DNA of 64,000 nucleotides from Thermosynechococcus vestitus BP-1. GTDB lineage: Bacteria > Cyanobacteriota > Cyanobacteriia > Thermosynechococcales > Thermosynechococcaceae. A model generated the notes under the pieces. That model did no database searches, was not told the DNA's origin, and saw only the letters and a program-made list of their open reading frames with translations. Shown here one piece after another: positions 34,297 to 37,188 of this stretch; positions within the stretch are counted from its first letter, which is position 1, and each line of letters opens with the position of its first letter. The stretch spans positions 1,426,001-1,490,000 of the forward strand of contig NC_004113.1 of assembly GCF_000011345.1 (NCBI RefSeq), given 5' to 3'. Made by a program: the position numbers and the translations under genes.

Positions 34297-34526
34297 TCTT
34301 GAAAGTAACTGAAAACTTGGTTAGGGCGATCGCTCTGTTTCTGCACTTTGACGGTGCACTGTATTATTCCTATCGAGCGATCGCTCCTCTAGGGTGAACC
34401 CGTTGACCCCGCAGCTGATCAAGACCGTCTCGCCACTTGGGCGCAGGGGGTTGTCATGGATAAGCAGCAATAATCAGCAAATCGTCATCGCTCCCACTTT
34501 AGAGGAGAGTCTTGAGGGCAACCCGC

Positions 34527-35315
34527 TTAATTAAAGCAGATGCTGAGAGAATCCCAGTGGCCTGAGGGGGCGATTTCTTTCAACTCATCAACGGAACAAA
34601 ATTTTCTACCCCCTTGGTGCTTTCTATACCTTTCGAGGCGCCCAATAACAACCTGAGCCTCGTCAATGGTCAATCCCGGAACACGCTTCTTAAGACTCTC
34701 CGCATCTCTATAGCTGTTGATGCGAATAGTGCGCCGGTTTTGTGATCCGGTTGGGGAGGACCCTAGGATGTTGCTAAGGGTTTTAACCTGTGCTGAGAGA
34801 TGCATCACCTGCTGAGATTGCTTCGCCATTTCTTGATGGATGCTTTCTATCTGTTTTTTGAGCGGTTGCAGATGGCGATCGAGGATGTTTGTGAATCCTG
34901 AGACTGACAAAGGTGACTGTAAGTAGGACCCTTCCTGTTGAGAGGGATGCCCTTGGGCATGGATTTGCATCAGCCTTTTGATCCGCTCTTGGAAATCTGA
35001 GACTTCTTGGTCATCCGCCAGTTCAACTCTGGTGGCCCACAACTGCTTAATCCCCAATTCCCGAGCAAAGTCGACAACTTCCTTGCCAAAGACAACTTCG
35101 TACTCTACATCTCTTGCCGGCGTGGTGACTGAGCGAATAATTAGGGGAATCAGGTTGGTTTGGTACTTTTCTAGATCTTCACGGATCAAGGTTGGTGAAA
35201 CATACAGTAGCTCTTGGGGATAGTCATCGGGAACTTTCAGGAGATCAATGTGCACCTGACCCTGATGCACATCGGATAGACCAAGGTACCTTGAGAGTCT
35301 GTTGGATTTACTCAT
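34527..35315 (-). CDS. ParB-like protein with coiled coil and C-terminal HhH
   Basis: 262 aa. Residues about 15-130 resemble a ParB/Srx-type domain (NLIPLIIRSVTT, YEVVFGKEVVDFARELGI, LWATRVELADDQE). A helical, coiled-coil-like region follows (about 145-185, LQPLKKQIESIHQEMAKQSQ). The end (about 198-250) has a ComEA-like helix-hairpin-helix pattern: IRINSYRDAESLKKRVPGLT...AQVVIGRLERY, then SVDELKEI. No classical ParB helix-turn-helix is seen. Its start overlaps the end of the nuclease-ParA fusion by 8 nt, so the two are translationally coupled and presumably partners. Whether the HhH replaces the HTH for DNA binding is inference. Confidence 0.7.
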   Translation of the reverse strand: MSKSNRLSRYLGLSDVHQGQVHIDLLKVPDDYPQELLYVSPTLIREDLEKYQTNLIPLIIRSVTTPARDVEYEVVFGKEVVDFARELGIKQLWATRVELADDQEVSDFQERIKRLMQIHAQGHPSQQEGSYLQSPLSVSGFTNILDRHLQPLKKQIESIHQEMAKQSQQVMHLSAQVKTLSNILGSSPTGSQNRRTIRINSYRDAESLKKRVPGLTIDEAQVVIGRLERYRKHQGGRKFCSVDELKEIAPSGHWDSLSICFN

Positions 35316-36675
35316 GCTGTGCGAAGGTCTCAGTGGAAAGATGGCGCGCTAAATTTTCAAATGTTGTGGCTAGCTCATCAATTGATTCTTGATCTGCTCT
35401 TGGCAATTCCCTATAAAGATTTCTACTAAATATGGGCTGCTGTAGATCTGTTGCTCTTTCTATAGCAGCACGCTTAGGAATCCACGTGTTCTCAGGCAAG
35501 AGATGACAAACGACAGCATACTCGCGAGCGACCTTCTCAAGGATACCCTGGAGCCTCTGTTGCATCTGCGCATTGACAGCGGAGTTCCTCTGATCGTACA
35601 TATTAACGGCAATACCCAGAAGCCGCGGCGGGTTATCCATGACAGGCCTGAAGGCTTCTAGGCGCGCCAAGACATACTCAATCGCCCGTATGGGGTAAGG
35701 GGCGAATTGTATCGGAACCAGAACGCCATGGGAAGCCATCAAAGCAATGGCGTTGACTTTACCGAAGGCGGGGGGTGGATCAATTAGAATGACATCGTAG
35801 GGGTGGTTTTTTAGCTTTCTTTGCAGGACGCGATCGATATCTATTGTCCTGATCAGGTCCGCTTCTTGGTCTGCGAGGCGAATGTGGGAGGGAACAACGT
35901 CTAAGCAGAGATTGTCCCAACGCTTTTGATAGACGACTTCTTCGAGGGTGACCTTTGGTTCTAGGAGGAGGTGAGCGATGTCTTTCCTGCCTTGATCCTC
36001 AATATCCTTCAAGGGATCAATGCCTAAACCAATGGTCAGATTCGACTGCGGATCAATATCAATGAGTAGCACACGCTTGCCCGTAGCAGCAAAGGCAGCA
36101 CCTAGGTTCAGGGTAAGGGTTGTTTTTCCCACTCCCCCTTTATGATTAAAGACAGTAATAATCATGGAAGTCCGCTGCGGATGTGTTAAGGGAAAAGCAT
36201 AATTTTTTTGCAGTACTTTTTCAAGGTGATGATAAATCTTGAGTTGCCCTTGGGTTAAGCGGCTCACGAGCATTTCAGCGGCATTGCGGTGCAATACCTT
36301 GGTCAGTGTTTGAATGCTTTTTCGATCCAACTGGCCGGCGGCACACTTGAGTTGGCACAGGGGCTTTTTTAGGGGATTTTGATAAAAGAGTTGGTAATCT
36401 TTACCATTGATGAGGAGGCCAAAAACCGCCTGAGCTGCTCTCATGTATCCCCGCAGTTGCTGCTGACCCCTGAGCCTTGACTCATTTGAGGATTTCACCT
36501 CAATCACAAGGTAGTTGAAGGAGCGATCGCCCGCCAGCGGCAAGCAAATTAGAAAATCGGGATAGCCATTCCCTAGCTTTGGCTTGCTCCAATAGTCTGA
36601 AGAGGCATAGCCCCATACCTTTAACAAAGGTAGGATGATCTTCTGTTCAATCTCGGCTTCGTTACCCCTAGGCAT
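35308..36675 (-). CDS. PD-(D/E)XK nuclease-like domain fused to ParA ATPase
   Basis: 455 aa. Residues 1-100 match the HsdR_N/type I restriction fold: Glu in EAEIEQKIILPLLKVWGY, Asp40 in GYPDFLI, Glu59 and Lys61 in LVIEVKSS, then GQQQLRGYMRAAQ and GLLINGKDYQLFY. The full E/D/ExK/Q signature is present, so the site may be active. Residues 171-455 are a ParA/Soj ATPase with deviant Walker A KGGVGKTT (179-186), A' in LLIDIDPQSN, and Walker B in VILIDPPP. Met171 looks like an ordinary ParA start, so an internal initiation at 36165 could yield ParA alone. It overlaps the ParB-like gene downstream and lies 18 nt after a zinc-ribbon membrane protein gene. Plain plasmid/chromosome partition is the conservative reading. 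Confidence 0.85.
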   Translation of the reverse strand: MPRGNEAEIEQKIILPLLKVWGYASSDYWSKPKLGNGYPDFLICLPLAGDRSFNYLVIEVKSSNESRLRGQQQLRGYMRAAQAVFGLLINGKDYQLFYQNPLKKPLCQLKCAAGQLDRKSIQTLTKVLHRNAAEMLVSRLTQGQLKIYHHLEKVLQKNYAFPLTHPQRTSMIITVFNHKGGVGKTTLTLNLGAAFAATGKRVLLIDIDPQSNLTIGLGIDPLKDIEDQGRKDIAHLLLEPKVTLEEVVYQKRWDNLCLDVVPSHIRLADQEADLIRTIDIDRVLQRKLKNHPYDVILIDPPPAFGKVNAIALMASHGVLVPIQFAPYPIRAIEYVLARLEAFRPVMDNPPRLLGIAVNMYDQRNSAVNAQMQQRLQGILEKVAREYAVVCHLLPENTWIPKRAAIERATDLQQPIFSRNLYRELPRADQESIDELATTFENLARHLSTETFAQHE

Positions 36676-36693
36676 CCCTCAGTGTCCTTGCCC

Positions 36694-37188
36694 TTACCTT
36701 CTGAGTAAGTACCAGTGGCTAAAATTAAAGGGAACGCTGGGCCACCAAAAAGGTGTGGGCAACAGCCCAGCAAAGACGCGCAGAACAATGAGTGTGTGGG
36801 CAAAAAAGGTCAGAGCCACCCAAAAGAGGGGAAACCAATAGGCACGTGGGTCGCTACTCAGGGGGGGAAACAGTTGATAGCCCAACCAAATTAAGGCGGG
36901 AGGCAAGGTTACCAATAAAATTGCCAGGATAATCGCCGTATAGGTGAGGCGAAGGGGGGGAGTGTTGAGCGATCGCCAGTTGGTACCCGTCCACTGCCAG
37001 CGAAATACCATGGCGCTGTCTTCGATCCGTGCTGTTTGATGGACAAAATCCAAGCTGAGAATATGGCGGCAAAAGTTACAGGCATAGGTATCCATCAGTA
37101 CCATCGGCGCAATTTGCCCGTGACGGCAGACGGGGCATAAATAGACGCCATTGGCTTCCAAGGGCTTAGCAGTGGTGGACTCTGGCAT
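36694..37188 (-). CDS. Membrane protein with zinc-ribbon-like N-terminus
   Basis: 164 aa. Residues 18-42 hold CPVC...CNFC, a rubredoxin/zinc-ribbon-like pair of knuckles. Two or three TM helices follow: about 84-105, 118-140, with a hydrophobic C-terminal stretch. The family appears cyanobacterial and uncharacterised as far as I can tell. The start is 3 nt before the leuA stop region and the stop is 18 nt from the nuclease-ParA gene, so all are probably one transcript. Confidence 0.75.
   Translation of the reverse strand: MPESTTAKPLEANGVYLCPVCRHGQIAPMVLMDTYACNFCRHILSLDFVHQTARIEDSAMVFRWQWTGTNWRSLNTPPLRLTYTAIILAILLVTLPPALIWLGYQLFPPLSSDPRAYWFPLFWVALTFFAHTLIVLRVFAGLLPTPFWWPSVPFNFSHWYLLRR

What the first reader, a model, noticed from the sequence alone, without database searches (positions are those of the whole stretch)
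35308..36675. Restriction-type nuclease domain fused to a ParA ATPase
The protein reads as an HsdR_N-like PD-(D/E)XK domain (Asp40, Glu59, Lys61, downstream Gln) followed by a full ParA/Soj ATPase with deviant Walker A at 179-186. ParA proteins position DNA or cargo and are not normally nucleases. With its coupled ParB-like partner this could be a DNA-surveillance or anti-plasmid/phage module, or a partition system with a DNA-cleaving step. The combination is one I do not know as a described system. Met171 could also produce a nuclease-free ParA.
Basis: partly seen in the sequence, partly recalled or inferred. Interest (0 to 1): 0.78.

Follow-up and report, generated by a model that had tools for sequence, protein, structure and literature searches.

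The report
Nuclease-armed ParA with ParB-like partner
Many cyanobacteria carry a two-gene module in which a DNA-positioning motor protein is fused to a restriction-enzyme-type DNA-cutting domain and paired with a DNA-clamp-like partner; the cutting residues are conserved, so this is probably a real machine that inspects and cuts DNA, but its job is unknown.

Summary
A diverged subfamily includes a paralogue in this genome. Asp40, Glu59 and Lys61 are present in all 70 distinct fusions aligned (one row by eye); the N-domain is under purifying selection. The partner family has a ParB N-domain and HhH/SAP/Rho_N ends but lacks ParB's GERR motif (0 of 33). The pair is patchy and sits in a variable site; some relatives lack the nuclease. 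Structure prediction was uninformative. Most likely an accessory DNA-surveillance module with a regulated nuclease; a partition-like role is the main rival. Nothing was assayed.

The parts
35308..36675 (-). Gene for the nuclease-ParA fusion (455 aa)
   Evidence: homologues
36301..36669 (-). N-terminal HsdR_N-type PD-(D/E)XK domain (residues 3-125); D40 codon 36556-36558, E59 36499-36501, K61 36493-36495
   Evidence: Pfam HSDR_N_2/HSDR_N over the family; D and ExK conserved
36163..36165 (-). Met171, candidate internal start for a nuclease-free ParA
   Evidence: Met kept in 46 of 49 clade A/B fusions, Shine-Dalgarno peak in relatives; only a weak one here
35311..36165 (-). ParA ATPase domain (residues 171-455); deviant Walker A 36118-36141
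   Evidence: AAA_31 2.2e-41; PDB ParA-type hits, best 1wcv 1.3e-26
34527..35315 (-). Partner gene, ParB-like (262 aa), overlapping the fusion gene by 8 nt
   Evidence: family downstream of the fusion in 61 of 63 strong loci
35016..35258 (-). ParB N-terminal-like region of the partner (about residues 20-100), without the GERR motif
   Evidence: family profile vs Spo0J 6sdk 1.6e-9; ParB_N in 25 of 33 members at E <= 0.1, not listed for this partner itself; 0 of 33 with R at the GERR positions
34767..34904 (-). Predicted long helix, probably coiled coil (residues 138-183)
   Evidence: AF2 partner model, helix 138-183
34530..34703 (-). C-terminal helical domain (residues 205-262); relatives have HhH, Rho_N or SAP there
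   Evidence: locally confident in AF2 (ten-residue means 73-91); Pfam hits in relatives at E <= 0.1
34300..36951 (.). Stretch holding the pair, missing at this site in congeners
   Evidence: flank alignment stops at 34297 (G245) and 34300 (G385); the other flank was seen only in G245, resuming at 36951 about 22 kb away; G245 has a pair at another site (L043)

Best explanation
An accessory ParA/ParB-like DNA-surveillance module armed with a nuclease. Shown by sequence: an HsdR_N-type nuclease domain with intact D...ExK, a full ParA with signature lysine, a downstream ParB-like partner with variable DNA-binding-type ends, and, in relatives, an internal start that would make a short nuclease-free ParA. 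Inferred: long and short ParA form ATP-bound dimers on DNA, as ParA and IncC1/IncC2 do. The partner binds a class of DNA by structure, topology or foreignness, since it has HhH/SAP/Rho_N modules and no parS-reading part that I could see. It stimulates the ATPase and so brings or licenses the nuclease domains on that DNA, which is nicked or cut. The long:short ratio would limit damage to the host chromosome. The target is most likely foreign or competing DNA (plasmids, incoming DNA); cleavage in the service of partition is the closest rival.
For: Catalytic residues in all 70 distinct fusions across three diverged clades (one row by eye; trees). N-domain dN/dS 0.05-0.23 in six pairs. Partner downstream in 61 of 63, with exchangeable C-terminal modules and higher dN/dS than ParA in four of five pairs (0.16-0.62). 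Patchy: 63 of 386 genomes. The pair is missing at this site in two congeners; clades A and B occupy the same ileS-linked site next to a plain ParA (L050 against L065, genes named by eye). The nuclease profile matches seven HsdR_N-like proteins on IMG/VR contigs. Two Nostoc sp. UHCC 0870 plasmids with a clade C pair also carry ParM and other par genes, so it is not the only partition candidate there. Internal start in relatives.
Against: No defence-island neighbourhood seen: recurring neighbours read by eye as IleRS, desaturase, threonine synthase and glycosyltransferases, with one large ATPase in 4 loci; the variable site in G245 holds what reads as surface-polysaccharide genes. Neighbours were not scanned against a defence library. 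PADLOC: candidate family PDC-M28B matched all 31 fusions, in the P-loop part for the window protein, and mad2/mad8 14 and 11 (regions not shown), none a full match for the window protein. Six ParAs of clade B type beside a partner, plus one with a helicase-like run-on, lack the nuclease domain, so the pair can persist without it. No activity data. A chromosomal nuclease without a methylase needs an unknown self/non-self rule.
Confidence: 0.42

Rival explanations
1. A partition or DNA-positioning system (type I ParABS relative) for chromosome or plasmid in which the nuclease domain does an auxiliary job, such as resolving entangled or damaged DNA.
For: Complete ParA with signature lysine and parA-parB-like gene order. 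Nuclease-free versions keep the partner. The own genome has no ParB_N hit above cut-off (one 96-codon frame at 0.001 below it). Long and short ParA are known in a partition system, RK2 IncC (PMC2666795, passages).
Against: The partner lacks GERR (0 of 33), and no HTH family is among the 25 families shown. Patchy distribution. Clade C plasmids have other partition genes. The own genome also has a 222-aa plain ParA (named by eye).
Confidence: 0.28
2. The nuclease domain is kept for DNA binding or dimer control, in the position of the N-terminal domain of long ParAs such as IncC1, without cleavage.
For: Same N-terminal position as the regulatory domain of IncC1 (PMC2666795, passages); absent in some relatives.
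Against: Asp40, Glu59 and Lys61 have no exception in 70 fusions (one row by eye), which binding alone would hardly require.
Confidence: 0.13
3. A DNA repair, recombination or natural-transformation factor: nuclease plus HhH partner acting on branched DNA or ends in polyploid cyanobacteria.
For: HhH and SAP modules occur in repair proteins (recalled); mostly housekeeping neighbours (by eye).
Against: Patchy presence and cassette replacement; no repair gene recognised among the recurring neighbours.
Confidence: 0.12

Closest known systems
ParABS partition systems (Soj/ParA and Spo0J/ParB)
   Same: ParA ATPase with deviant Walker A; downstream partner with ParB N-domain
   Different: HsdR_N nuclease domain fused to ParA; partner lacks GERR and ends in HhH/SAP/Rho_N; not the only partition candidate on the plasmids seen with clade C
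RK2 IncC1/IncC2 with KorB
   Same: ParA made in long and short forms from alternative starts (PMC2666795, passages); here conserved Met plus Shine-Dalgarno in relatives
   Different: The N-terminal extension here is nuclease-like; the word 'nuclease' does not occur in that paper; translation of a short form is unproved here
Type I restriction HsdR and standalone HSDR_N_2-type proteins
   Same: PD-(D/E)XK domain with the GLLTNG...Y motif
   Different: No helicase motor in the fusion; ParA and ParB-like partner instead; no methylase noticed beside it in the window (by eye)
ParB-fold nuclease/NTPase proteins (GmrS, DdrB-like, Osa)
   Same: ParB fold in conflict settings linked to DNA cleavage (PMC5512222, passages)
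   Different: Here the nuclease is on ParA; that paper says ParA-like association is absent in its polyvalent proteins

Membership tests
ParABS partition system | ParA ATPase with deviant Walker A and signature lysine | tested here: met
   KGGVGKTT; K179 invariant in 31; AAA_31 2.2e-41
ParABS partition system | Adjacent parB with ParB N-terminal fold | tested here: met
   61 of 63; profile vs 6sdk 1.6e-9; ParB_N in 25 of 33 at E <= 0.1 (the window partner itself is not among its listed hits)
ParABS partition system | CTP-binding GERRxRA motif in ParB | tested here: not met
   0 of 33 have Arg at the GERR positions
ParABS partition system | Central HTH that reads parS | tested here: inconclusive
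   No HTH family among the 25 of 108 families shown for the partners
ParABS partition system | parS/centromere site and DNA inheritance function | not tested
   No site search or inheritance assay
Type I restriction HsdR | HsdR_N PD-(D/E)XK motif | tested here: met
   HSDR_N_2 29 of 31, HSDR_N 26 of 31; D, E, K in 70 of 70 (one row by eye)
Type I restriction HsdR | SF2 translocase fused to the nuclease, with HsdM/HsdS | tested here: not met
   ParA follows the nuclease domain; no methylase or specificity gene noticed among ORFs at 27-46 kb (read by eye)
Known anti-phage systems (PADLOC-DB 2.0) | A specific protein model of a defence system | tested here: inconclusive
   P0001: two PDC-M28B models at residues 143-208 and 169-224 only; all 31 fusions match PDC-M28B, 14 mad2, 11 mad8, 4 Cas4 at E <= 0.01, regions not shown. 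P0002: none; relatives at most 3 of 33 for one model
IncC-like dual-start ParA | Alternative translation starts giving long and short ParA | tested here: inconclusive
   Conserved Met and Shine-Dalgarno peak in relatives; weak at the window's own Met171; no protein data
PD-(D/E)XK fold | Predicted or solved fold | tested here: inconclusive
   AF2 pLDDT 42.7; PDB profile hits weak: BpuSI 3s1s 0.012, Cas4 0.38, HsdR 3h1t 0.54; the best, 7ue2 at 3.7e-7, is by its alignment a repeat protein that I take to be false

The most novel reading that the evidence does not exclude
A new class of ParA-driven DNA surveillance: a dual-product gene makes a nuclease-armed and an unarmed ParA that patrol the nucleoid together, and a ParB-like clamp without parS specificity marks foreign or aberrant DNA for cutting. 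It exists in three diverged clades in cyanobacteria and would be a partition machine turned into a weapon.
Probability: 0.3. Interest if true: 0.92.

Novelty: new variant of a known kind. Interest (0 to 1): 0.72.

Why it matters
ParA and ParB are textbook positioning proteins. A family-wide, selected fusion of a restriction-type nuclease to ParA, with a ParB-like partner that lacks the GERR CTP motif, shows that the partition toolkit has been joined to DNA-cleavage machinery. If cleavage is confirmed, it is either an unknown kind of DNA defence or exclusion, or a partition system that cuts DNA. The internal start makes the regulation directly testable.

Tried and rejected
Structure: AF2 of the fusion and of the partner with three sequences each was poor (pLDDT 42.7 and 55.2). 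Foldseek with the partner model had no match at E <= 0.001. The fusion model was not searched.

Spread beyond cyanobacteria: five of the top plasmid matches to P0001 (H1, H3, H4, H13, H18) proved to be ParAs without a detectable N-domain; the other records of that search were not opened. A clade C query found 5 plasmid records at E <= 1e-10, all Nostoc or Leptolyngbya. A clade B query found 33 at E <= 1e-20, none covering 80% of it. Partner P0002: no match in plasmids. N-domain: no match in phages. IMG/VR gave seven loci, all HsdR_N-like proteins without ParA. Genome contigs was scanned once, with the single protein: 2 loci, both Thermosynechococcus. Other phyla were not searched genome by genome, so 'cyanobacteria only' is not claimed.

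Sequencing error: rejected. Loss of the nuclease by frameshift in the nuclease-free relatives: no N-domain relic at E < 0.4 within up to 1,500 bases upstream in six loci, six frames; G298 (L147) is instead a split or frameshifted fusion. I at first took the two nuclease-ParAs to be the only ParAs of the genome; one search shows a plain one (222 aa) and a MinD-like one. Single origin of the fusion: unresolved (A+B 87/73, C apart; the bootstrap had not settled; 73 of 102 rows kept after dropping long, broken and near-identical rows).

Full report
What is there. The window lies in a 2,593,857-base single-contig genome. On the minus strand, after a leuA-like gene and a 164-aa gene, a 455-aa ORF (36675-35308) is followed with an 8-nt overlap by a 262-aa ORF (35315-34527) (gene names by eye). 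The 455-aa protein has a ParA ATPase at about 171-455 (AAA_31 2.2e-41; PDB 1wcv 'segregation protein' 1.3e-26) and a 120-residue N-domain. For this protein alone the nuclease matches are weak and under cut-off (PDDEXK_3 0.0023, HSDR_N 0.015, HSDR_N_2 0.032). Over the family they are clear: 29 of 31 members match HSDR_N_2 and 26 of 31 HSDR_N at E <= 0.01, best 4.7e-9.

How widespread. A single-sequence search with the N-terminal 171 residues rang in 63 of 386 cyanobacterial genomes, a few of them through longer HsdR-like frames. A 19-row N-domain profile rang in 117 of 386 at E <= 1e-5; of these 63 are strong (E <= 1.1e-32; 19 families, 36 genera), then comes a gap to 1.4e-12. A 33-row partner profile rang in 101 of 386 at E <= 1e-3, with 74 strong places (E <= 1.5e-31) in 66 genomes. 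By coordinates, 61 of the 63 strong N-domains have a strong partner hit on the same strand 290-1210 bases downstream. The exceptions are a contig edge (G080) and a real orphan (G011). Thirteen strong partner places have no strong N-domain: some lie beside nuclease-free ParAs (below), others are mostly a longer partner type of about 370 aa. In an earlier set of 43 loci the partner was downstream in 41.

Subfamilies. Weak N-domain hits revealed clade C: all 20 loci examined, including the paralogue of this genome (L077, 28% identity), join the N-domain to ParA, and 17 of 20 have a ParB-like neighbour (loci partly picked for that neighbour). In the tree of ParA domains clades A (with the window), B and C each have 100/100 support; A+B is weak at 87/73, and the bootstrap had not settled (a quick tree of 101 rows gives the same clades). 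One or two origins of the fusion cannot be told apart.

Is the nuclease kept? Among 70 distinct fusions (six of 76 N-domain rows dropped as duplicates, HsdR or split), Asp40 is in 70, Glu59 and Lys61 in 69; the last row (L104) is an alignment slip and reads LVEVKG. Tyr77 is in 66; position 73 is Q, R or K in 68. dN/dS of the N-domain is 0.054-0.228 in six pairs against 0.024-0.208 for the ParA part. Against it: six ParAs of clade B type beside a partner lack the domain (L119, L132, L133, L134, L149, L150), with no relic upstream, and a seventh (L136) runs on from helicase-like sequence instead. Four of the six genomes have a nuclease-ParA elsewhere (G011, G211, G245, G149). Several loci have frame-broken or split fusions (L045, L047, L072, L137, L147).

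The partner. Its profile matches B. subtilis Spo0J (6sdk, 1.6e-9), other ParBs and Noc; ParB_N is found in 25 of 33 members at E <= 0.1 (best 1.3e-10). The window partner itself has no ParB_N hit listed and is reached only through the family. At the place of ParB's GERR the sequences read GHFEYY, GADWC, GKEVV and the like; 0 of 33 have the arginine. A coiled coil follows, then an exchangeable end: HhH in some, Rho_N or SAP/HeH in others. The AF2 partner model is poor overall (55.2), but residues 205-262 are locally confident.

An internal start. At the first residue of the ParA domain a Met is kept in 46 of 49 clade A/B fusions, always ATG, while the linker before it is not conserved; clade C has none in 20. 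Shine-Dalgarno-like sequence lies before it in 21 of 46, against 18 of 278 other internal ATGs in the same ORFs (Fisher 1.8e-10; the sequences are related, so only a guide). Codon by codon the signal peaks at that position or the codon before it in A (9 of 18) and B (14 and 15 of 31) and is absent in C (0 of 20); elsewhere in the 30 codons before it at most 5 of 18 and 7 of 31. A larger peak 11-15 codons downstream is the Walker A region itself. Against it: the window's own Met171 has only a weak match (-3.2 kcal/mol), though three congeners have AAGGAG; and of the six nuclease-free relatives only L149 shows such a sequence before its ParA start (by eye; starts of L134 and L150 uncertain). RK2 IncC is a known ParA with two starts (PMC2666795: passages, abstract among them).

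Setting. The pair occupies window 34300-36951. The flanks align at 86-90% in congeners; on the left, alignment stops at 34297 in G245 and 34300 in G385. The right flank was seen in G245 only, where it resumes at 36951 about 22 kb away, across genes that read as surface-polysaccharide genes (by eye); G245 has a pair at another site (L043). In 12 of 43 loci a plain divergent ParA of 294-333 aa lies upstream of the pair; clades A and B are found at the same ileS-linked site (by eye). Two Nostoc sp. UHCC 0870 plasmids carry a clade C pair: one also has ParM and a plain ParA-type gene (all 35,711 bases seen), the other ParM and two ParA-ParB pairs (50,000 of 55,062 bases seen). The own genome has no ParB_N over cut-off but has a plain 222-aa ParA (by eye).

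Reading. Conserved catalytic residues, purifying selection, a fixed partner and a likely short form argue for a regulated nuclease on a ParA platform. Patchiness and cassette exchange argue for an accessory role. I favour DNA surveillance or exclusion (0.42), then partition with an auxiliary nuclease (0.28). No assay, fold model or defence-island context backs either; the catalytic step is inferred. PADLOC is inconclusive: PDC-M28B matches all 31 fusions, in the P-loop part for the window protein.

Print. Eight searches of the held library (listings) and passages of four papers, PMC12704722, PMC2666795, PMC7159879 and PMC5512222, showed me no description of a nuclease-ParA fusion. No paper was read whole. 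Subscription papers and most preprints are not held, so it may be described elsewhere. The 2025 ParB-fold survey says that of its ParB domain fusions only ParB-DUF3850 was consistently beside parA (PMC12704722, 12 of 43 places shown).

Noticed in passing
L050, L051, L061, L062, L065, L067, L073, L075, L076, L078, L079, L081; also L139, L147, L148: A plain ParA (294-333 aa where complete), forming its own clade, lies divergently upstream of the pair; at an ileS-linked site clade A pairs and clade B pairs replace each other (genes named by eye).
   Followed up: partly
L067, L073, L079, L081: A large P-loop ATPase gene of 658-696 aa recurs downstream of the pair on the opposite strand (cluster 9).
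   Followed up: no
G000:C1:2565662-2565823 (L005): A decayed fragment that reads like a clade B-type ParA (84 codons open) in the window's own genome; congener G245 has an intact nuclease-free pair of that type (L149).
   Followed up: no
G011: L052/L141 and L119: One genome has an orphan nuclease-ParA without partner and, elsewhere, a nuclease-free ParA with a partner, as if the two halves were split.
   Followed up: partly
L045, L047, L072, L137, L147: Fusions broken or split between N-domain and ParA in different frames, at different points; pseudogenes, sequencing errors or splits not told apart.
   Followed up: no
L064:7880-8998, L068:7826-8920, L069:7497-8597: A second partner-family gene of 364-372 aa lies downstream of the pair.
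   Followed up: no
L130:10259-11701, L131:9734-11152: On Leptolyngbya and Nostoc plasmids, a further ParA branch of about 470-480 aa with a long N-terminal extension, followed by a 178-180 aa hypothetical gene; in L130 the P-loop reads KGGVAKTT.
   Followed up: no
L136:3277-4854 (G119): The open frame of a clade B-type ParA runs on from a helicase-like sequence (526 codons), with a partner gene downstream.
   Followed up: no
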